This document shows, piece by piece, positions 1 through 8,569 of a DNA stretch of 64,000 nucleotides (the stretch's first letter is position 1; each line of letters starts with the position of its first letter). The stretch is taken from positions 248,001 to 312,000 of the forward strand of contig NZ_BBUL01000020.1 of assembly GCF_000953825.1 (NCBI RefSeq), in the 5' to 3' direction. The position numbers were made by a program, and so were the translations under genes. Below the pieces are notes generated by a model, which was not told where the DNA came from, did not search any database, and saw only the letters and a program-made list of their open reading frames with translations. The DNA is from Cellvibrio sp. OA-2007 (GTDB lineage Bacteria; Pseudomonadota; Gammaproteobacteria; Pseudomonadales; Cellvibrionaceae).

Positions 1-2766
1 CGCAACTACTGTGCGGCGGCAGCGGCCTTGGGGCCTTTGTTGGCCTTGGCGCTGCTGCTCAGTTATGTGCCCGCACTGTTTGCTGGGCAGGCCTTTTTTA
101 GTGAGTGGGGCTGGCTGCCGCAGCTGGGGTTAAACCTGAGTTTGCGGCTGGATGGGCTGGGCTTGATGTTTGCCTTGTTGATTCTTGGCATCGGCCTGCT
201 GGTAATTATTTACGCGCGTTATTACTTGGCCGATAAGGATTCCCTCGGCCGCCTCTATGCGCTATTGCAGCTATTTATGATGGCGATGCTGGGCATAGTG
301 CTGGCCGATAACCTGCTGCTATTGATTGTATTTTGGGAGCTGACCAGCCTGAGTTCGTTCCTGCTGATTGGCTACTGGTCGCACCGCAGCGATGCCCGCA
401 AAGGCGCGCGTATGGCGCTGGCGATCACCGGGGCAGGGGGTTTGTGTTTGCTTGCCGGCGCGCTGGTGCTCGGCCAAATCACTGGCTCTTACAGCTTGCA
501 AGTAATCACTAACTCGGCGGAGTTGATTCAATCTCACGCGCTTTATCCGGTCGCACTTATTCTGATTTTGATTGGCGCGTTTACCAAATCGGCGCAGTTT
601 CCCTTCCACTTTTGGCTGCCCCATGCGATGGCGGCACCCACACCGGTATCGGCCTATTTGCACTCGGCGACTATGGTGAAGGCGGGGGTATTTTTGCTCG
701 CGCGTCTGTATCCGGCGCTATCGGGTTCAGATTTGTGGTTCTATCTAGTCACCTTTACCGGCCTTGCAACCCTCGTCTTTGGCGCCTATACCGCGCTGTT
801 TAAACATGACCTTAAAGGGCTGTTGGCCTATTCGACGATTAGCCACCTCGGCCTGATTACCATGTTGTTTGGTTTTAGCAGCCAGCTGGCGACTATGGCG
901 GCGCTGTTTCATATCATCAACCACGCGACGTTTAAGGCCTCGCTATTTATGGCGGCGGGCATCATCGACCACGAAACCGGCACCCGCGATATGCGTCAGA
1001 TCAACGGTATGTGGAAGTACATGCCGATCACCGCTACGGTGGCCATGGTGTCGGCTTCGGCCATGGCGGGGGTGCCGCTGCTCAACGGCTTTTTGAGTAA
1101 GGAGATGTTTTTTGCCGAGACGCTGCAGGTGGAGTTAATGGGCGGCTTCGATTGGATTATTCCGTTTTTTGCCACCCTCGCCGGTATCTTTGCGGTGGCC
1201 TATTCCTATCGTTTTATTCACGATGTGTTTTTTAACGGCTACCCCATCGACCTGCCCATCTACCCGCCCCATGAGCCGCCGCGCTACATGATTATGCCCA
1301 TGGCGCTGCTCTGTGCACTCTGTTTGCTGGTGGGGATTTTGCCCAACCTGACTGTTGCGCCTTTTTTGGATGCAGCCAGTTTGGCGGTGTTGGGCAATGG
1401 GGTGCCCGAGCACCATATCGCGCTTTGGCACGGGTTAAATCTGCCGTTGATGATGAGCCTGCTGGCGTTTTTGGGCGGTCTTTTGCTCTATAGCCAGCGC
1501 GGCGGCCTGTTTGCCTTTTATGAGCGCAAATACCGTTTGGATGAAAACGTCGAGTTTGAAAAGCGCATCCAAGTCATTGTGCGTTTTGCCCAGCGGGTGA
1601 CGGACGCCTTGGAAATCGGTTCATTGCAGCGCTCGGTGGCACTGCTGCTCGGCATGGTATTGCTGGTGGGCACGGTAGAGTTCTGGCCACTGGTGCGGCT
1701 AATGGGCGATGTTGCGCTCACGCCAATCGATTGGGTCAGCCTGTTATTGGCGGTGGTATTGATGATCGCCGCGCTGGTCACGGTAATCATTCACCACAAC
1801 CGTTTTGCTGCACTGTTGGTATTGGGCGTGGTGGGGTTGATGGTCTCGCTCGCCTTTGTGCGTTTCTCCGCGCCGGACTTGGCGCTCACCCAAATCTCGG
1901 TGGAAGTGGTCACCATCATCCTGCTGATGTTGGCGCTCTATTTCCTGCCGCAGCAGACGCCGTTTGAATCCTCGGCGGGCACCGTGGTGCGCGATATCGC
2001 CTTGGCTGCCGGTGCGGGCATAGGTGTTGGCCTGCTGACCTTGGCGATTTTGACTCGCCCTTACGACACCAGTCTCGCCGAATTTTTCCTCGCCAATAGC
2101 GTCAGCGGCGGCGGTGGTACCAATGTGGTGAATGTGATTCTGGTCGATTTCCGCGGCTTTGATACGCTCGGTGAAATCAGTGTATTGGCGATTGCTGGCT
2201 TGGGTGTGTACCTGATGCTGGATGGTTTGCAATTGCCGCTGCCGGGCACCGATGGCGAAGGCCGCAACTGGTCGCGCGACCCTTATCCGCCAATCCTCAC
2301 CGTGCTTTCACGCATTCTGCTGCCGCTGGCGCTGATGGTATCGGCCTATATTTTCCTGCGCGGCCACAACCAACCGGGCGGGGGGTTTATCGCCGGTTTG
2401 ATTACCAGTATCGCGCTGATTTTGCAGTATGTATGCAGCGGTTCTGCCTGGGTGCAACAGCGTTTGCCGGTGGATTATGGTCGCTTGAGTGTGTTTGGTG
2501 TGCTGGTCGCCGCACTCACCGGTATCGCCAGTTGGGCGTTTGGCCATCCCTTCCTCACCACTACTTTTACCCATGTGCACTGGCCGCTGGTGGGCGAGTT
2601 TGAACTCGCCTCGGCAATGATTTTTGATACGGGTGTATTTCTCACTGTAGTGGGCGCCACCCTGTTAATGCTGGCACAGCTGGGGCGTTTGGCGCAGACC
2701 ACCCACGGTGCGATTGCCATCCACCCCGATCTTTCGCCCAATCCTGCTTTGAAGGAGCTAAATTAA
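1..2766 (+). CDS. mrpA: Mrp antiporter subunit A fused to subunit B (5' partial)
   Basis: Largest subunit of the multi-subunit Na+(K+)/H+ antiporter (Mrp/Mnh/Pha), an inner-membrane complex related to the antiporter-like subunits of complex I. The reading frame is open from base 1, so the start lies upstream of the window; the first in-frame start-like codon (TTG at 28) is inside the first membrane helix and is unlikely to be used. The proton-channel signature is visible: E113 in FWELTSLSSF and K196 in TKSAQFPFHFWLP (numbering from base 1). About 20 helices follow. The C-terminal third, from about residue 760, carries the MrpB-like part (GHNQPGGGFIAGL), so mrpA and mrpB are one gene, as in the group 2 Mrp operons of Proteobacteria. 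It overlaps mrpC by one base. Probably only some 20 N-terminal residues are missing. Confidence 0.96.
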   Translation, partial: RNYCAAAAALGPLLALALLLSYVPALFAGQAFFSEWGWLPQLGLNLSLRLDGLGLMFALLILGIGLLVIIYARYYLADKDSLGRLYALLQLFMMAMLGIVLADNLLLLIVFWELTSLSSFLLIGYWSHRSDARKGARMALAITGAGGLCLLAGALVLGQITGSYSLQVITNSAELIQSHALYPVALILILIGAFTKSAQFPFHFWLPHAMAAPTPVSAYLHSATMVKAGVFLLARLYPALSGSDLWFYLVTFTGLATLVFGAYTALFKHDLKGLLAYSTISHLGLITMLFGFSSQLATMAALFHIINHATFKASLFMAAGIIDHETGTRDMRQINGMWKYMPITATVAMVSASAMAGVPLLNGFLSKEMFFAETLQVELMGGFDWIIPFFATLAGIFAVAYSYRFIHDVFFNGYPIDLPIYPPHEPPRYMIMPMALLCALCLLVGILPNLTVAPFLDAASLAVLGNGVPEHHIALWHGLNLPLMMSLLAFLGGLLLYSQRGGLFAFYERKYRLDENVEFEKRIQVIVRFAQRVTDALEIGSLQRSVALLLGMVLLVGTVEFWPLVRLMGDVALTPIDWVSLLLAVVLMIAALVTVIIHHNRFAALLVLGVVGLMVSLAFVRFSAPDLALTQISVEVVTIILLMLALYFLPQQTPFESSAGTVVRDIALAAGAGIGVGLLTLAILTRPYDTSLAEFFLANSVSGGGGTNVVNVILVDFRGFDTLGEISVLAIAGLGVYLMLDGLQLPLPGTDGEGRNWSRDPYPPILTVLSRILLPLALMVSAYIFLRGHNQPGGGFIAGLITSIALILQYVCSGSAWVQQRLPVDYGRLSVFGVLVAALTGIASWAFGHPFLTTTFTHVHWPLVGEFELASAMIFDTGVFLTVVGATLLMLAQLGRLAQTTHGAIAIHPDLSPNPALKELN

Positions 2767-3149
2767 TGGAAGCCTTAATTGCCGCTGTGATTGCGGTTTT
2801 AGTGAGCTGCGGGATTTACCTGCTGCTGCGCGCGCGTACTTTTCCGGTCATTCTCGGCCTGACCCTGCTGTCTTACGCGGTCAATCTGTTTATTTTTGTG
2901 ATGGGGCGTTTGGGCAGTGAATCCGCCGCCGTGATCGGCCAGGGCGATAACCTGAATCGCTACGCCGACCCTTTACCGCAAGCGCTGGTGCTAACCGCAA
3001 TTGTGATTGGCTTTGCAATGACCGCCTTTCTGCTGGTGCTCGCCCTGCGCGCCCGCGCCGAACTGGGCAATGACCATGTGGACGGCAGCGCCGCCATCGG
3101 CGAGAAACCGGTCAAACCGGTGCGCCCGCTAGAGGAGGATGAAGTGTGA
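2766..3149 (+). CDS. mrpC: Mrp antiporter subunit C
   Basis: Small NuoK-like membrane subunit of the Mrp Na+/H+ antiporter, 127 residues with three predicted helices. The conserved stretch DPLPQALVLTAIVIGFAMTA typifies MrpC/MnhC/PhaC. The start ATG overlaps the last base of the mrpA stop and the stop overlaps the mrpD start by four bases, which indicates translational coupling. The C-terminal tail after residue 100 is charged and probably cytoplasmic. Confidence 0.96.
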   Translation: MEALIAAVIAVLVSCGIYLLLRARTFPVILGLTLLSYAVNLFIFVMGRLGSESAAVIGQGDNLNRYADPLPQALVLTAIVIGFAMTAFLLVLALRARAELGNDHVDGSAAIGEKPVKPVRPLEEDEV

Positions 3150-4657
3150 GCCACTGGATTATTGTTCCGGTTTTACTGCCGCTGTTTACCGCCGTACTGC
3201 TGATTCTGCTCTCTGGCCGCCGCACGCTAATCCGCAGCTTAAGTTTGCTCTCGGCCACCGCCTTATTGGCCACCAGTATGCTGCTGTTAGGGCAGGCGAA
3301 TGACGGTGAAATCCGCCTCTATGCGCTGGGCAACTGGCTGCCGCCGTTCGGCATTTTGCTGGTGTTGGATCGCCTTAGCGCCTTGATGTTAATGGTCACT
3401 GCAGTGCTGGCATTTTTCAGCATCGCCTATGCGGTGCGCGGTAACGATGCCCCCGGCGACAAACTGCACGCCATGGTGCACTTCCTGCTCTTGGGGGTGA
3501 ACGGCGCATTTCTCACCGGCGATTTGTTTAACCTGTTTGTGTTTTTTGAGGTGCTGTTAATTTCCTCTTATGGCTTGTTATTGCACGGGCGCGGCGCCGA
3601 GCGGGCGCGGGCAGGGCTGCATTATGTGGTGCTCAACCTGTGTGGTTCGGCGTTGTTTTTGATCGCCGTGGCCGCGCTCTATGGGGTGACTGGCTCACTC
3701 AATATGGCCGATATGGCCGACAAAGTACGCCAGATCAGCCCGGAAGATGCCCCTTTGGTCGCCACCGCTGGCGTGCTTCTGCTGATCGTGTTTGGCCTTA
3801 AAGCCGCCATAGCACCACTCTACTTTTGGCTGCCGCGCGCCTATGCCGCCGCGAGTGCACCAGTCGCGGCCATGTTTGCGATTATGACCAAGGTAGGTGT
3901 GTACACCATAGTGCGGGTTTATACGCAAATCTTCGGCAATGATGCGGGCAATGTCGCCGATCTTGCTTGGCCGTGGCTCTGGCCATTGGCGCTGATTACG
4001 CTGGTATTGGGTTTGTTGGGGGCGCTGGCGGCGCGTGAACTGCGCATTCAAATCGCCTACTTGGTGGTTGTCTCGGTCGGTACTTTACTGGCGGGCATCG
4101 CGCTTAATACACCAGCGGCACTGGCGGCGAGTTTCTATTATTTGGTCCACTCCACGCTGATCTGTGGCGTGTTGTTTTTGCTGGCCGATCTTATCCTGCG
4201 CCAGCGCGGTGAGCTGTTGGATCGCATTACCAAAGGCCCGCAACTGCGCCAATCTGCACTCTTGGGCGCGCTGTTTTTTATCGCCGCCATCGGTGTGATT
4301 GGCCTGCCGCCGCTGAGTGGATTTATCGGCAAGTTGCTGCTGCTGAGTGCTGCCGGTGTGCATCTGGAAACCGCGCTGCTTTGGTTGATTGTGCTGGCCG
4401 GTAGCCTGTTCACCCTGATGGCGCTGAGCCGCAGCGGTTCCACCTTTTTCTGGCGTACCGACAGCCGTATCGAACAGGCACCTGCCGCCGATAAGGGCGC
4501 ATTGCTGGCGGTGATCGGCCTGCTGTTGTGCATCCTGGCAATCAGCATCCATGCCGCGCCGATACTGGCTTACACCCAAGCGTTGGCGCAGCAACTGTTG
4601 GAACCGCAAGCCTATAGCGAGGCTATGCAGGTCTTCCGTGTGATAGAGAGGAATTAA
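3146..4657 (+). CDS. mrpD: Mrp antiporter subunit D
   Basis: Second large antiporter-like subunit (NuoL/M/N family), 503 residues with about 14 membrane helices. It shows the family signature FNLFVFFEVLLISSYGLL with the conserved Glu in the helix-5 region, and GLKAAIAPLYFWLPRAYAAA with the conserved Lys in helix 7. It starts with GTG, preceded by a strong AGAGGAGG ribosome site at about 3131-3138, and overlaps mrpC by four bases. With MrpA it forms the putative proton and sodium paths. Confidence 0.97.
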   Translation: MSHWIIVPVLLPLFTAVLLILLSGRRTLIRSLSLLSATALLATSMLLLGQANDGEIRLYALGNWLPPFGILLVLDRLSALMLMVTAVLAFFSIAYAVRGNDAPGDKLHAMVHFLLLGVNGAFLTGDLFNLFVFFEVLLISSYGLLLHGRGAERARAGLHYVVLNLCGSALFLIAVAALYGVTGSLNMADMADKVRQISPEDAPLVATAGVLLLIVFGLKAAIAPLYFWLPRAYAAASAPVAAMFAIMTKVGVYTIVRVYTQIFGNDAGNVADLAWPWLWPLALITLVLGLLGALAARELRIQIAYLVVVSVGTLLAGIALNTPAALAASFYYLVHSTLICGVLFLLADLILRQRGELLDRITKGPQLRQSALLGALFFIAAIGVIGLPPLSGFIGKLLLLSAAGVHLETALLWLIVLAGSLFTLMALSRSGSTFFWRTDSRIEQAPAADKGALLAVIGLLLCILAISIHAAPILAYTQALAQQLLEPQAYSEAMQVFRVIERN

Positions 4658-4659
4658 CT

Positions 4660-5205
4660 ATGGCGCTCAACCTTGGCAATCCGCAGGTGGCTAAACCGCC
4701 CAAAGCGCGCAGCTGGTTTCCGCACGCCGCGCTCAGTTGTTTTATGTTGGTGCTGTGGCTACTGCTCGCCAATAGCATCAGTGTTGGTCAGGTTTTACTT
4801 GGCAGTATTCTCGCCTGGTTTATCCCCTGGTTTAGTCAGGGTTTTTGGCCTGAGTCACTGCGCATGCGTAAACCCTGGGTACTGTGCAAATTCCTGCTGG
4901 TGGTGATGTGGGATATTGTGATCGCCAACCTGATTCTGGCGGCGCGTATTCTGGGTCCAGTCAAACGCCTGCAGCCGGGATTTATGCAGGTGCCGCTCGA
5001 TATCGAACAAGAGTTCACCATCACCCTGCTGGCCAGCACCATCTCGCTTACCCCCGGCACAGTGTCGGCGGATTTGAATATGGAAGGCCGCTACTTGCTG
5101 GTGCACAGCCTGCATGTGACCGACATAGACGCCGCCATCGCCGCCATTAAACAGCGCTACGAAGCCCCGCTCAAAGAGGTGTTTGAATGCTCACCACAGC
5201 CATAA
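4660..5205 (+). CDS. mrpE: Mrp antiporter subunit E
   Basis: 181-residue membrane subunit of the Mrp complex (MnhE family). It has two N-terminal helices, then a soluble domain with the family motif LLASTISLTPGTVS and the ending LLVHSLHV. It begins two bases after mrpD behind an AGAGAGG ribosome site and overlaps mrpF by 19 bases. The N-terminal 20 residues are basic and proline-rich, slightly longer than in many homologues. Confidence 0.95.
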   Translation: MALNLGNPQVAKPPKARSWFPHAALSCFMLVLWLLLANSISVGQVLLGSILAWFIPWFSQGFWPESLRMRKPWVLCKFLLVVMWDIVIANLILAARILGPVKRLQPGFMQVPLDIEQEFTITLLASTISLTPGTVSADLNMEGRYLLVHSLHVTDIDAAIAAIKQRYEAPLKEVFECSPQP

Positions 5206-5456
5206 ATATCGCCATGTTCCTGCTCGGCCTCGCCATCGCCCTAAACCTGTGGCGGCTGGTGATCGGCCCCTCGCTGCCCGACCGCATCCTCGCGCTGGAC
5301 ACCATGTACATCAACGCCATCGCCCTACTGGTGCTGTTCGGCATTCATCAGGGCAACAATTTGTATTTTGAAGCCGCACTGTTAATCGCAGTGATGGGTT
5401 TTGTCGGCACCGTTGCGCTCAGCAAATACCTGCTGCGCGGCGACATTATTGAATAA
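5187..5456 (+). CDS. mrpF: Mrp antiporter subunit F
   Basis: 89-residue, three-helix Mrp subunit (MnhF family) with the typical GPSLPDRILALDTMYINAIALLVL core. The start lies inside mrpE behind an AAAGAGG ribosome site. The last 17 codons including the stop, and one base beyond it, are repeated exactly at 6733-6784 on the far side of the RhuM-Fic insert. The protein itself is intact: the left copy of the repeat still provides its C-terminus (GTVALSKYLLRGDIIE). Confidence 0.95.
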   Translation: MLTTAINIAMFLLGLAIALNLWRLVIGPSLPDRILALDTMYINAIALLVLFGIHQGNNLYFEAALLIAVMGFVGTVALSKYLLRGDIIE

Positions 5457-5457
5457 T
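5406..5457 (+). repeat. 52-bp direct repeat, left copy (3' end of mrpF)
   Basis: Bases 5406-5457 are identical over 52 bp to 6733-6784, offset 1327. The copy covers the end of mrpF including its stop. The flanks diverge immediately on both sides. The pair brackets the RhuM-Fic insert and looks like an attachment-site or duplication boundary. Confidence 0.95.
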
Positions 5458-5586
5458 GAAAACCTGTCACCGCAAAATTTCATGTAATGCAAATTGGCGC
5501 AGGGTCGTGACGGTAAAGACGTGTCTTTCATTCGGATCTTCAATCACCACCCCCGATTTTGATAATTCATAAAAAGAATTAACACG

Positions 5587-6573
5587 ATGAACCAAAACCA
5601 AATACAACTCTTTACTTCTACCGATGGCCAAACGGCTATTGAGGTTCGTTTACAAGGTGATACTGTCTGGCTTAACCGCCAGCAGTTGGCAGAATTGTTT
5701 GATCGGGATATTAAAACCATTGGTAAGCATGTAAATAACGTGTTCAGGGAGGGCGAGCTTAACCAGAATACAGTTGTCGCAAATTTTGCGACAACTGCGG
5801 CTGATGGTAAAACCTATCAGATGGAACATTACAATTTAGATGTGATTATCTCCGTCGGTTACCGCGTTAAATCGCAACGCGGTGTACAGTTCCGCCAATG
5901 GGCCACCCAAACGCTCAAGCAACACTTGGTTCAAGGCTACACGCTCAATCAAAAAAGATTGCAGGAGCGTGGTATAGAGTTTGAGCAGGTGGTTAGCCTG
6001 CTATCCCAAACCTTGGCTAATCAATCGCTAGTCAACCCGGAAGGTGCTGCCGTGGTGGGTGTGATTCAGGATTACGCCCGCAGTTGGAGCCTATTGCAAG
6101 GTTATGACGAGCAATCCCTCGGCAATAACACCACCACACAACGGGGCATGGCAGCACTGGATTTGGACATGGCATTACAGGCCATTGGCGAACTGAAACA
6201 AGAGCTTATCGCCAAAGGTGAAGCCACTGTGCTATTTGGCCAATTGCGCGGCAATGGCTTAGCCTCTGCCATCGCCACGATTGAGCAAGGTTTTGGCGAT
6301 GAATTGTTTTACCCTAACGTCGCTAGCCGTGCCGCACACTTGCTGTATTTTGTGATCAAGAACCACCCACTGGCCGATGGTAATAAGCGCAGCGGTTCAT
6401 TTTTGTTTTTGTGGTATCTGCGTTTAAACCAAGGCTTTTTAGCCAAGCCTGTCGAGCAGTTAATTAATGACAACACCTTGGTTGCTTTAGCGCTATTAGT
6501 TGCGGAAAGCAAACCCGAACAAAAAGAATTAATGGTTCGCTTGATTGAGCATTTTGTGGTGTTGAAGGCGTAA
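5587..6573 (+). CDS. RhuM family / Fic domain protein
   Basis: 328-residue protein with an N-terminal RhuM domain (about residues 1-115, with HYNLDVIISVGYRVKS and a DNA-binding-like WLNRQQLAELF segment). The C-terminal Fic fold carries the motif H260-P-L-A-D-G-N-K-R268. Fic enzymes transfer AMP or related groups from nucleotides to target proteins; the motif's His and DGNKR phosphate-binding loop are present, while the second Arg of the classical HPFxDGNGRxxR motif is absent, as in Doc and RhuM-linked Fic proteins. The target is unknown. No separate antitoxin gene is adjacent. It sits inside the mrp operon between subunits F and G, bounded by 52-bp direct repeats, so it was probably acquired. 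It could act as a toxin, a defence effector or a regulator; the sequence does not decide. Confidence 0.88.
   Translation: MNQNQIQLFTSTDGQTAIEVRLQGDTVWLNRQQLAELFDRDIKTIGKHVNNVFREGELNQNTVVANFATTAADGKTYQMEHYNLDVIISVGYRVKSQRGVQFRQWATQTLKQHLVQGYTLNQKRLQERGIEFEQVVSLLSQTLANQSLVNPEGAAVVGVIQDYARSWSLLQGYDEQSLGNNTTTQRGMAALDLDMALQAIGELKQELIAKGEATVLFGQLRGNGLASAIATIEQGFGDELFYPNVASRAAHLLYFVIKNHPLADGNKRSGSFLFLWYLRLNQGFLAKPVEQLINDNTLVALALLVAESKPEQKELMVRLIEHFVVLKA
5771..5797. repeat. 27-bp palindrome inside the RhuM-Fic gene
   Basis: Two perfect 13-bp arms (CAGTTGTCGCAAA and its reverse complement) flank one central base. It lies in the codons for VVANFATTA, between the RhuM HTH-like part and the HYNLD motif. 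It could form a strong hairpin in the mRNA or bind a dimeric protein. Confidence 0.9.
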
Positions 6574-6594
6574 AAAAACAAGAGAAGCAATTTA

Positions 6595-6783
6595 ATGCTA
6601 GAAATCGATTCGCTAGAAGATGTCGCCGCACTGCGTGAAAGCCTAGACATTGAACTGGAAGGCGGAGAAAGTGACTGCCAGAATCATGCACTACATGAAA
6701 TGTTCTTGTTAATAGGCTTGGGCAAGCGTGCAGGCACCGTTGCGCTCAGCAAATACCTGCTGCGCGGCGACATTATTGAATAA
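6595..6783 (+). pseudogene. Chimeric remnant: AlbA_2/Schlafen-like N-terminus joined to duplicated mrpF tail
   Basis: A 62-codon frame 21 bases after the Fic gene. Its first about 20 residues (MLEIDSLEDVAALRESLDIE) resemble the N-terminus of AlbA_2 (Schlafen-like, divergent AAA-4) proteins, where an LRES-x-x-LE segment precedes the nucleic-acid-binding core. The rest of that domain is missing. The last 16 residues are the duplicated mrpF C-terminus. It is therefore most likely a decayed cargo gene truncated at the repeat boundary and not a functional protein. The family match is from memory of the short motif. Confidence 0.5.
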
Positions 6784-6784
6784 T
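6733..6784 (+). repeat. 52-bp direct repeat, right copy
   Basis: Exact copy of 5406-5457. It restores the sequence that would originally have run from mrpF into the mrpF-mrpG spacer. Deleting 5458-6784 (or the equivalent one-repeat excision) would leave mrpF and mrpG about 40 bases apart, as in uninterrupted mrp operons. Confidence 0.95.
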
Positions 6785-6822
6785 AGAAAGTCGAATAATG
6801 AAAAGTTGAATAGGGGAATCCG

Positions 6823-7152
6823 ATGTCAGTTTGGTTGGAATACATAATCAGTTTTTGCCTGCTTGCCGGCGCCGCGTTTGCGCTGATTGGCTCAATCGGC
6901 CTCATGCGCCTACCCGATTTCTACATGCGCCTGCACGGCCCCGCCAAAGCCACCACCTTGGGGGTGGGCGGCATCATCATCGGCTCAGTCATTTTCTTCT
7001 CCACCCGGGGCGATGGCCTGAGTCTGCATGAATTACTCATCGCACTCTTCCTCTTCCTCACCGCCCCCGTAAGCGCGCATATTGTTGCCAAAGCGGCACT
7101 GCATTTGAAGTTGGCAGCGGTGGAAAGGACGCGGGGGAAACCGTGGGAGTAG
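6823..7152 (+). CDS. mrpG: Mrp antiporter subunit G
   Basis: 109-residue, three-helix MnhG/PhaG subunit. It shows the family motif IGSIGLMRLPDFYMRLHGPAKATTLG and a C-terminal LTAPVSAHIVAKAAL. The ribosome site GGGG lies at about 6812-6815. It is the last gene of the mrp operon, now separated from mrpF by 1.37 kb because of the RhuM-Fic insert, so its expression may depend on read-through of the insert. Confidence 0.95.
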   Translation: MSVWLEYIISFCLLAGAAFALIGSIGLMRLPDFYMRLHGPAKATTLGVGGIIIGSVIFFSTRGDGLSLHELLIALFLFLTAPVSAHIVAKAALHLKLAAVERTRGKPWE

Positions 7153-7231
7153 AAAAATGGAAGATTACATTTGTTGTTAATTTAGCGATGAAATAGGATT
7201 ACCCTGTTATTTTCTTAAGGAGTGAGTAGTT

Positions 7232-7489
7232 ATGCCGATAATCAGCCGGTTTTATGGAATCCTAATTGCCATGTATTTTAATGATCACAACCCGCCGCAT
7301 TTTCATGCGAAATATTCTGGCTATGAAGCGATGTTTGCTTTCGATGGCACAGTTCTGGAGGGAGAAATGCCCAAGAGGGCGATGGTGTTTGTGCAAGAAT
7401 GGATCGCACTTCACAAGGCTGAACTCGAAGATAATTGGAATAGAGCAAAAACAGGACAATCACTCAATTACATTGCACCCTTGGAGTAG
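7232..7489 (+). CDS. DUF4160 domain protein
   Basis: 85-residue protein with the DUF4160 hallmark HNPPHFHAKY (residues 19-28) and a C-terminal helix. The function is not established. It has a good AAGGAG ribosome site at 7217-7222 and is followed after three bases by a DUF2442 gene. This pairing recurs in many bacterial genomes, often near mobile genes, and has been suspected to be toxin-antitoxin-like; that role is inference. Confidence 0.9.
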   Translation: MPIISRFYGILIAMYFNDHNPPHFHAKYSGYEAMFAFDGTVLEGEMPKRAMVFVQEWIALHKAELEDNWNRAKTGQSLNYIAPLE

Positions 7490-7492
7490 ATC

Positions 7493-7744
7493 ATGTTGCA
7501 TATTCGCTCAGCTAAATATCTATCAGGATTTAAACTCTGGCTTGTTTTTGACGATGGCACTGCGGGCGAAGTCGATTTGGATGGGGTACTTACAGGGCCA
7601 GTATTTGAGGTGTTAAAAAATGTGGATATTTTTAAAAAAGTCGCAGTAGATCCTGAGCTAGAAACAGTCGTTTGGCCTAATGGTGCAGATTTAGCACCGG
7701 AGTTTTTGAAAGAACTCCATCAAAAACAAATACAAGTATCTTAA
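7493..7744 (+). CDS. DUF2442 domain protein
   Basis: 83-residue protein of the DUF2442 family, recognisable by VFDDGTAGEVDL, the GPVFEVLKN helix and the ending TVVWPNGADLAPEFL. It is in an operon with the DUF4160 gene three bases upstream. No catalytic motif is visible. It is probably the partner protein of a two-gene accessory module. Confidence 0.9.
   Translation: MLHIRSAKYLSGFKLWLVFDDGTAGEVDLDGVLTGPVFEVLKNVDIFKKVAVDPELETVVWPNGADLAPEFLKELHQKQIQVS

Positions 7745-7840: not shown

Positions 7841-8569
<729 letters not shown>

What the first reader, a model, noticed from the sequence alone, without database searches (positions are those of the whole stretch)
5406..6784. RhuM-Fic cassette inserted between mrpF and mrpG, framed by perfect 52-bp direct repeats
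A 1.3 kb block carries one RhuM-Fic gene plus a broken gene piece, and lies inside an otherwise uninterrupted antiporter operon. Both ends carry the same 52 bases, which are the last codons of mrpF with its stop. The insertion therefore leaves mrpF intact while moving mrpG away. This is how site-specific integrative elements use a gene end as attachment site, but no integrase is present, and protein-gene ends of mrpF are not a site I know of. It could be a new small mobile cassette or the relic of a larger one.
Basis: partly seen in the sequence, partly recalled or inferred. Interest (0 to 1): 0.85.

Follow-up and report, generated by a model that had tools for sequence, protein, structure and literature searches.

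The report
RhuM-Fic gene inserted with target duplication
A single bacterial toxin-like defence gene, with scraps of a neighbouring gene, has landed inside an ion-pump operon and duplicated about 55 bases of the pump gene on either side; similar single-gene landings are seen elsewhere, so genes of this kind seem to spread without any visible transposition enzyme.

Summary
In this Cellvibrio genome 52 bases (5406-5457 = 6733-6784), the end of mrpF with its stop, are repeated perfectly around a 1.27-kb foreign block. The 11 other Cellvibrio genomes with a detected mrpG have one copy and an uninterrupted mrpF-mrpG junction. The block holds an intact RhuM-Fic gene (PADLOC PDC-S23) and scrambled pieces of an AlbA_2/HATPase_c_4 gene on both sides.

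The attachment-site reading is not supported: no recombinase, no occupation of this site in the 62 further genomes whose junction is listed, and other RhuM-Fic genes sit at other targets. [quoted passage not shown] Of 114 other RhuM-Fic loci 17 have flanking direct repeats, 14 of them 48-299 bp (the 45-bp cut was set after seeing the data); control ORFs 10 and 2 of 180. The clearest duplicate an hsdR head, an hsdR tail or a transporter tail. It is not peculiar to RhuM-Fic: AlbA_2 genes show it at least as often (8 of 30 unique). Joining enzyme and intermediate remain unknown.

The parts
5187..5456 (+). mrpF (K+/H+ antiporter subunit F), intact; target gene
   Evidence: Pfam PF04066 1.9e-22; NCBIfam NF004812 135.1 bits, cut-off 93
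5406..5457 (+). Direct repeat, left copy: native end of mrpF with stop; GAAAA at 5458-5462 may also belong to the duplicated target
   Evidence: relatives' junctions
5474..5491 (+). Left arm of an 18-nt inverted repeat (16 of 18) with 6687-6704, unexplained
   Evidence: 0 of 60 shuffles of the end segments reach 16
5486..5518 (+). AlbA_2 gene piece, reads CKLAQGRDGK (about codons 21-30), displaced to the left of RhuM-Fic
   Evidence: 33 nt at 82% to L143/L175, 10 of 10 residues
5587..6573 (+). RhuM-Fic gene, 328 aa, Fic motif HPLADGNKR intact
   Evidence: Pfam Virulence_RhuM 1e-24 and Fic 7.6e-11; PADLOC PDC-S23 4.8e-168 over residues 1-327; motif in 122 of 125 loci, doubles included
6595..6654 (+). 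AlbA_2 gene head, codons 1-20 (MLEIDSLEDVAALRESLDIE)
6655..6735 (+). AlbA_2/HATPase_c_4 gene middle piece (LEGGESDC...LGKRAG), after an in-frame loss of roughly 330 codons; cut where the mrpF tail begins
6687..6704 (-). Right arm of the 18-nt inverted repeat
6733..6784 (+). Direct repeat, right copy (mrpF tail and stop), followed by the native mrpF-mrpG spacer
   Evidence: spacer resembles L009 and L008
6595..6783 (+). 62-aa fused ORF (AlbA_2 head + middle + mrpF tail)
6823..7152 (+). mrpG, intact, displaced by the insertion
   Evidence: PF03334 3e-28; NF009316 168.8 bits, cut-off 122

Best explanation
[quoted passage not shown] A DNA fragment carrying a RhuM-Fic gene and pieces of an AlbA_2/HATPase_c_4 gene, both kinds found in type I restriction loci, joined mrpF at two points about 55 bases apart, so that the stretch between them was copied on both sides. 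SHOWN: the empty site in relatives, the perfect repeat, the different base composition, the scrambled AlbA_2 pieces, and flanking repeats around a minority of other RhuM-Fic genes. INFERRED: a 3-bp shared run (GGC) at the right junction, since the donor is unknown; the joining was replicative or illegitimate (a template switch out of the target after mrpF's stop and back in 52-57 bases upstream, or fill-in of widely staggered breaks), with no element-coded recombinase; and such events persist because mrpF stays whole and mrpG keeps its start, while the toxin-like gene may be kept by selection for defence or addiction.
For: 52-bp perfect repeat; one copy and a contiguous junction in 11 of 11 other Cellvibrio genomes with mrpG found. 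Insert 46% GC against 57% in the operon; best RhuM-Fic relative in the family 77%. AlbA_2 codons about 21-30 left of the gene, codons 1-20 and a middle piece to the right: scrambling expected of template switching. The glycine codon at the right junction is GGC in 4 of 7 AlbA_2 relatives. Flanking same-strand repeats: 17 of 114 other unique RhuM-Fic loci, 14 of at least 45 bp, against 10 and 2 of 180 ORF controls (Fisher 0.007 and 6e-5 without the window; the length cut is post hoc). Clean parallels: L205 101 bp 97% hsdR head; L204 57 bp 86% hsdR tail with stop; L211 135 bp 97% transporter tail with stop; L057 60 bp 78% and L116 48 bp 81% hsdR heads. Restriction genes inserting with long and variable target duplication are described in print (passages of PMC3031569, PMC1643837, PMC3154945).
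Against: 97 of 115 RhuM-Fic loci show no flanking repeat by this test. AlbA_2 genes show repeats more often (8 of 30 unique), weaker RhuM matches 2 of 13 and Fic-family genes 3 of 26, so the signal may belong to defence islands in general. In the first 91 loci alone the excess over ORF controls is not significant (10 of 91, p = 0.09). Several repeats are not simple target duplications: L125 contains a dispersed repeat; L115 is a decayed second copy of the whole gene; the L093 and L097 copies look like paralogue fragments. Empty sites of the other loci were not demonstrated: for L125, the only one tried, two Advenella-side relatives align with L125 only up to the end of the upstream gene. Only one genome of this species was seen, so the age of the event is not known beyond the identity of the copies.
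Confidence: 0.65

Rival explanations
1. Site-specific integrative element: the mrpF 3' end is an attB, the 52 bp are attL/attR, and the integrase has been lost or acts in trans.
For: Perfect repeat at a gene 3' end that keeps the gene whole; some other RhuM-Fic repeats are gene tails ending at or just after a stop (L204, L211).
Against: No recombinase match among the ORFs of the insert; the site is empty in 11 of 11 Cellvibrio and in the 62 further junctions listed; the right boundary lies inside a truncated AlbA_2 gene; other RhuM-Fic copies use unrelated targets, including gene heads.
Confidence: 0.1
2. Relic of a transposon or IS-borne segment whose transposase and ends have been deleted; the long repeat is a secondary duplication.
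For: The AlbA_2 gene is deleted internally, so deletions did occur; an 18-nt inverted repeat lies near both ends (16 of 18; 0 of 60 shuffles).
Against: 52-57 bp is far longer than usual IS target duplications (about 3-14 bp, recalled); no second DNA copy of any part of the insert in the genome except a 27-bp palindromic self-match; no comparable inverted repeat in the six other inserts examined (best 12 or 13 of 18, reached by 14 to 41 of 60 shuffles).
Confidence: 0.12
3. Imported ready-made: homologous recombination brought in a mrpF-mrpG segment that already carried the insert, from another species.
For: The left junction resembles the short spacer of G010 (GAATAATGAAAA) and the right the long spacer of G019, as if two spacer alleles were involved.
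Against: Both repeat copies are identical and share GGCACC, whereas L004, L005, L008, L009 and L012, the relatives with 88-89% identical MrpG, have GGCACA (L013 does have GGCACC); the short form also follows from a slip between two GAATAAT repeats.
Confidence: 0.08
4. Assembly artefact in a 97-contig genome.
For: Draft assembly; a 52-bp repeat is short enough to mislead an assembler using small k-mers (recalled).
Against: Both junctions must exist in reads for the AlbA_2-mrpF fusion and the mrpF-leader join to be assembled; the contig is 405 kb and the insert occurs once. No reads were available to check.
Confidence: 0.05

Closest known systems
Insertion with long target duplication of restriction-modification genes (Nobusato et al. 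2000; Furuta et al. 2010; both seen only as citations inside held papers)
   Same: Foreign defence-type gene flanked by a long direct repeat of target DNA; empty site with one copy in related genomes; no transposase seen; neighbouring gene kept whole.
   Different: Cargo is a solitary RhuM-Fic gene plus AlbA_2 scraps, not a methylase/nuclease pair; the host gene is a cation antiporter subunit; Cellvibrio rather than Helicobacter; the insert is internally scrambled.
RhuM/Doc-type toxin genes in restriction loci (Anantharaman et al. 2013, PMC3710099, passages seen)
   Same: RhuM domain fused to a Fic/Doc domain; relatives sit in hsd operons, also in Cellvibrio sp. 79; 46 of 93 loci, doubles included, have HsdM or HsdS in the stretch held.
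   Different: Here it stands alone in a housekeeping operon without any hsd gene in the insert.
PADLOC candidate PDC-S23
   Same: Full-length match 4.8e-168.
   Different: PADLOC lists a candidate only; no function tested here.
Integrative elements with a gene 3' end as attachment site (recalled)
   Same: Gene end with stop repeated on both sides.
   Different: No integrase, no repeated use of the site seen, boundary inside a broken gene.

Membership tests
Insertion with long target duplication | Long direct repeat of target sequence on both sides of the insert | tested here: met
   52 of 52 bp
Insertion with long target duplication | Related genomes have the same locus with one copy and no insert | tested here: met
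   11 of 11 other Cellvibrio genomes in which mrpG was found
Insertion with long target duplication | Cargo is a restriction-modification gene | tested here: inconclusive
   Cargo is RhuM-Fic plus AlbA_2 pieces, genes linked to type I loci in other genomes, but no hsd gene in the insert
Insertion with long target duplication | No transposase or integrase in the insert | tested here: met
   ORFs of 50 aa or more and their Pfam/NCBIfam searches
RhuM-Fic (PDC-S23) | RhuM and Fic domains over full length, Fic motif HPFx[D/E]GN[G/K]R (motif recalled) | tested here: met
   (HPLADGNKR at residue 260; third residue L instead of F)
RhuM-Fic (PDC-S23) | AMPylation activity, phage protection | not testable with these tools
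   needs the bench
AlbA_2/HATPase_c_4 (COG2865-like) gene | Complete AlbA_2 and HATPase_c_4 domains | tested here: not met
   only codons 1-20, about 21-30 (displaced) and about 27 codons of the middle remain; no such Pfam hit
Site-specific integrative element | Encodes an integrase or excisionase | tested here: not met
Site-specific integrative element | Same site occupied in other genomes | tested here: not met
   11 Cellvibrio and 62 others among the 219 matching genomes of 390 searched; for the rest of the 219 the capped listing does not show both genes
Site-specific integrative element | Excision as a circle | not testable with these tools
   PCR needed

The most novel reading that the evidence does not exclude
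RhuM-Fic genes are a minimal kind of self-spreading gene: one ORF of about 1 kb, without transposase, that moves as a small circle and enters coding targets with variable 48-300 bp duplications, using host repair that its own toxin provokes. In this window the AlbA_2 head is split exactly at codon 20/21, codons 1-20 on the right and about 21-30 on the left, which is what a circle of RhuM-Fic plus the AlbA_2 head would give if opened there; in Halomonas LBP4 (L093) the AlbA_2 head after RhuM-Fic also ends at the same GRDG codons.
Probability: 0.13. Interest if true: 0.88.

Novelty: new variant of a known kind. Interest (0 to 1): 0.58.

Why it matters
How restriction and other defence genes move without transposases has been an open matter since long target duplications were noticed in Helicobacter. 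Here is a clean case in another bacterial group, with single-gene cargo and an empty site in 11 relatives, and a set of comparable loci (L205, L204, L211, L057, L116) in which the duplicated target and both junctions can be read. That makes the joining mechanism testable in a laboratory strain, and suggests that the phenomenon covers toxin-like accessory genes of type I loci as well as restriction enzymes themselves.

Tried and rejected
Viral contigs: 34 stretches matched a pattern, none a relative by tblastn. Phages: 2 records, plasmids: 20 records at E <= 1e-30; too few to call it plasmid- or phage-borne. DNA search of plasmids: 16 records, none covering 80% of the query. E. coli genomes: 1 short match in 5426 genomes, so no strain series with and without the gene there. 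Rfam at 5000-7500: nothing at E <= 0.1. Promoter/terminator scan: near shuffle level. Conserved ends of the unit: none seen by eye among the nine inserts printed; the inverted repeat of this window has no like in six others. The flank DNA has no meaningful match at the RhuM-Fic loci L045-L136 except the AlbA_2 head of L093. The HsdR profile drifted and was disregarded; only its HsdM and HsdS hits are used (counted by hand from the listing). Pfam on the 62-aa fused ORF gave only a 0.18 hit, disregarded. A first test of flanking repeats with exact matches over 2.5 kb (10 of 93 against 24 of 544 intervals) was replaced by the 800-bp test. Random-interval control: 12 of 347.

What was dropped before counting: 7 double loci and 3 loci with under 200 bp of flank among the 125 RhuM-Fic loci given, leaving 115 (114 without the window). 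The 45-bp length cut was chosen after seeing the lengths. The three hits below it are L135 (17 bp), L056 and L199 (39 bp each). The 180 control ORFs come from loci L045-L136, in which six loci occur twice. The comparison sets (Fic 3 of 27, RhuM 2 of 13, AlbA_2 10 of 34) were recounted without doubles (3 of 26, 2 of 13, 8 of 30; at least 45 bp: 2, 2 and 4). I did not check that the Fic-family loci lack RhuM or that the weaker RhuM matches lack Fic. The AlbA_2 Fisher test printed used 8 of 32, typed by hand, and is superseded.

Mechanisms considered and set aside: tandem duplication of mrpF alone (does not explain the foreign block); plasmid-type integration by homology (needs a plasmid with a mrpF piece, none seen).

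Papers: PMC3031569, PMC1643837, PMC3154945, PMC2654758, PMC4978471, PMC3710099 and PMC8565338 were seen as passages found by term; the rest only in search listings. Nobusato 2000 and Furuta 2010 are cited from those passages; Furuta 2010 is not held. A search for RhuM with 'target duplication' found no paper. The library is open-licence papers only.

Full report
WHAT IS THERE. The window lies in a Cellvibrio genome: G009, of the same genus, carries on contig C1 (2,347,035 bp) the RhuM-Fic gene that one search lists on the Cellvibrio sp. 79 contig of the same length. At 1-7152 runs an mrp/pha-type cation antiporter operon. mrpF (5187-5456) and mrpG (6823-7152) are both intact, but 1.37 kb apart. 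The last 16 sense codons of mrpF with the stop and one base, 5406-5457, recur without a mismatch at 6733-6784. Between the copies lies a block of 46% GC in an operon of 57%, present once at DNA level in the genome; a distant RhuM-like stretch (33%) and a distant AlbA_2 relative (43%) lie on other contigs.

EMPTY SITE. mrpG was found in 12 of 21 Cellvibrio genomes including this one. In all 11 others mrpF is followed directly by mrpG (L014), and none has a repeat around mrpG (0 of 11). The spacer right of copy 2 resembles that of G019 (L009), which also has a second GAATAAT 15 bases on; copy 1 ends like the short spacer of G010 (L008), GAATAATGAAAA. So the duplicated target may be 52 bases, or about 57 if copy 1 lost 15 bases by a slip between the two GAATAAT. 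Both copies have GGCACC where L004, L005, L008, L009 and L012 have GGCACA; L013 also has GGCACC. I take both copies to derive from this lineage's own mrpF.

CONTENT. RhuM-Fic, 328 aa, matches Virulence_RhuM and Fic and PADLOC PDC-S23 over its length; the Fic motif reads HPLADGNKR, and the motif is kept in 122 of 125 loci, doubles included. Right of it, 6595-6735 encodes MLEIDSLEDVAALRESLDIE joined to LEGGESDCQNHALHEMFLLIGLGKRAG. Full-length relatives (Pfam SLFN_AlbA_2 and, just under the cut-off, HATPase_c_4 for the Cellvibrio sp. 79 protein) show these to be codons 1-20 and a stretch some 330 codons further on, so the gene has lost its middle in frame and stops inside the motif GLGE(R)AGSG, where the mrpF tail takes over. 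The glycine codon there is GGC in 4 of 7 relatives, so a shared GGC at the join is likely but not proven. Left of RhuM-Fic, 5486-5518 encodes CKLAQGRDGK, the stretch that follows codon 20 in AlbA_2 genes (33 nt at 82%). The AlbA_2 gene is therefore split around RhuM-Fic exactly at codon 20/21. An 18-nt inverted repeat (16 of 18) lies near the two ends and is not reached in 60 shuffles; its right arm is inside the AlbA_2 piece. I cannot explain it. The remaining ORFs of 50 aa or more in the insert, all on the minus strand, have no Pfam match.

WHERE SUCH GENES LIVE. In Cellvibrio sp. 79 the order is rhuM-fic, hsdR, hsdM, hsdS, a SIR2-like gene, a Fic gene, one more ORF, AlbA_2 gene. Of 80 RhuM-Fic loci from named genomes, 35 have an hsd gene by BLAST with these queries; by iterated profiles 46 of 93 loci, doubles included, have HsdM or HsdS. 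Others stand alone, for instance between an Era-like GTPase gene (GTPase and KH domains) and recO in a Pasteurellaceae MAG (L075). The link of RhuM to restriction loci and its fusion to Doc are in print (PMC3710099, passages).

IS IT AN ATTACHMENT SITE? One search covered 390 genomes of the order with MrpF and MrpG joined; 219 matched. Where the listing shows both parts (39 in one piece, 24 in two, window excluded; one of the 24 is Cellvibrio G003) the genes are adjacent, two-piece gaps -43 to 134 bp; the window's own is 1225. For the other matching genomes the capped listing does not show both. No recombinase is in the insert. This does not favour an att site.

RECURRENCE. I asked whether other RhuM-Fic genes have same-strand repeats between the 800 bp on either side (blastn, E <= 1e-3). 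Of 115 unique loci 18 do, 15 with at least 45 bp, this window included in both. Control ORFs of 0.7-1.8 kb from loci L045-L136: 10 of 180, and 2 of 180 of at least 45 bp; random intervals 12 of 347; mrpG loci 0 of 11. Fisher tests without the window: 0.007 for any length, 6e-5 for the length cut, which was chosen after seeing the data. The first 91 loci alone (10 hits, window included) give 0.09, the second set (8 of 32) 0.002. Other accessory genes behave alike: AlbA_2 8 of 30 unique, Fic family 3 of 26, weaker RhuM matches 2 of 13. So this is a feature of such defence-type genes, not of RhuM-Fic alone, and for AlbA_2 it is the commoner.

THE CLEAR PARALLELS. L205: 101 bp at 97%, the head of hsdR (HSDR_N), repeated before a 1024-bp insert that is RhuM-Fic, up to its last codons, with about 45 bp of leader; the upstream copy has a stop. 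L057 and L116: 60 bp (78%) and 48 bp (81%) of an hsdR head, inserts of 1033 and 1065 bp. L204: 57 bp (86%) ending at a stop, the tail of hsdR (EcoEI_R_C), then the insert of 1015 bp, the copy and hsdS. L211: 135 bp (97%), the tail of an MFS transporter with its stop, insert 1309 bp. L204 and L211 have the same anatomy as this window. Less clear: L115 (a decayed second copy of a whole glycosyltransferase gene), L125 (185 bp, but with a core dispersed in that genome), L093 and L097 (paralogue fragments), L076, L195, L198, L199, L201, L210. Empty sites for these loci were not shown; I tried only L125, where two relatives align only up to the end of the upstream gene.

HOW IT PROBABLY WORKS. Two joins to the target, 52-57 bases apart and in the order that duplicates what lies between, are the shown facts. 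A template-switching copy (out of mrpF after its stop, through pieces of a RhuM-Fic/AlbA_2 locus, back into mrpF upstream) explains the duplication, the variable length elsewhere and the scrambled AlbA_2. Fill-in of staggered breaks explains the duplication but not the scrambling as simply. Neither is proven. After the event mrpF is whole, and mrpG keeps its native spacer; the fused 62-aa ORF ends at the copied mrpF stop, so translation just upstream of mrpG may be restored. That both joins of that ORF are in frame could be chance (1 in 9).

KNOWN OR NEW. Insertion of restriction genes with long and variable target duplication is described (passages of PMC3031569, PMC1643837, PMC3154945); the original papers were not seen. 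This is a variant: solitary accessory toxin-like gene as cargo, in a housekeeping operon, with a scrambled insert. I found no paper with RhuM and 'target duplication' together, in a library of open-licence papers only.

Noticed in passing
window 7844-8569: A subclass B1 metallo-beta-lactamase that passes NCBIfam's cut-off for the KHM family (513.6 bits, cut-off 480). Relatives of 83-84% identity in 3 other Cellvibrio genomes and 57-60% in 2 more, 6 of 21 including this one; in G005 it also lies beside mrpG. Cellvibrio could be a natural source of this family; activity untested.
   Followed up: partly
window 7232-7744: DUF4160/DUF2442 pair resembling the DhiT/DhiA toxin-antitoxin system, below the NCBIfam cut-offs (77.4 of 100 and 34.2 of 200 bits), between mrpG and the metallo-beta-lactamase.
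   Followed up: no
L138-L176 (AlbA_2/HATPase_c_4 loci): 8 of 30 unique genes tested have flanking same-strand direct repeats of 32-416 bp, 4 of them at least 45 bp; this family may move in the same way.
   Followed up: partly
L250 521-2305: A Fic-family gene directly follows a HAD-hydrolase-like ORF; 103 bp near the end of that ORF are repeated (84%) right after the Fic gene.
   Followed up: no
L075 4960-7717: RhuM-Fic alone between an Era-like GTPase gene and recO in a Pasteurellaceae MAG, without a detectable flanking repeat.
   Followed up: no
window 5474-5491 and 6687-6704: 18-nt inverted repeat (16 of 18) near the two ends of the insert; its right arm is coding AlbA_2 sequence.
   Followed up: partly
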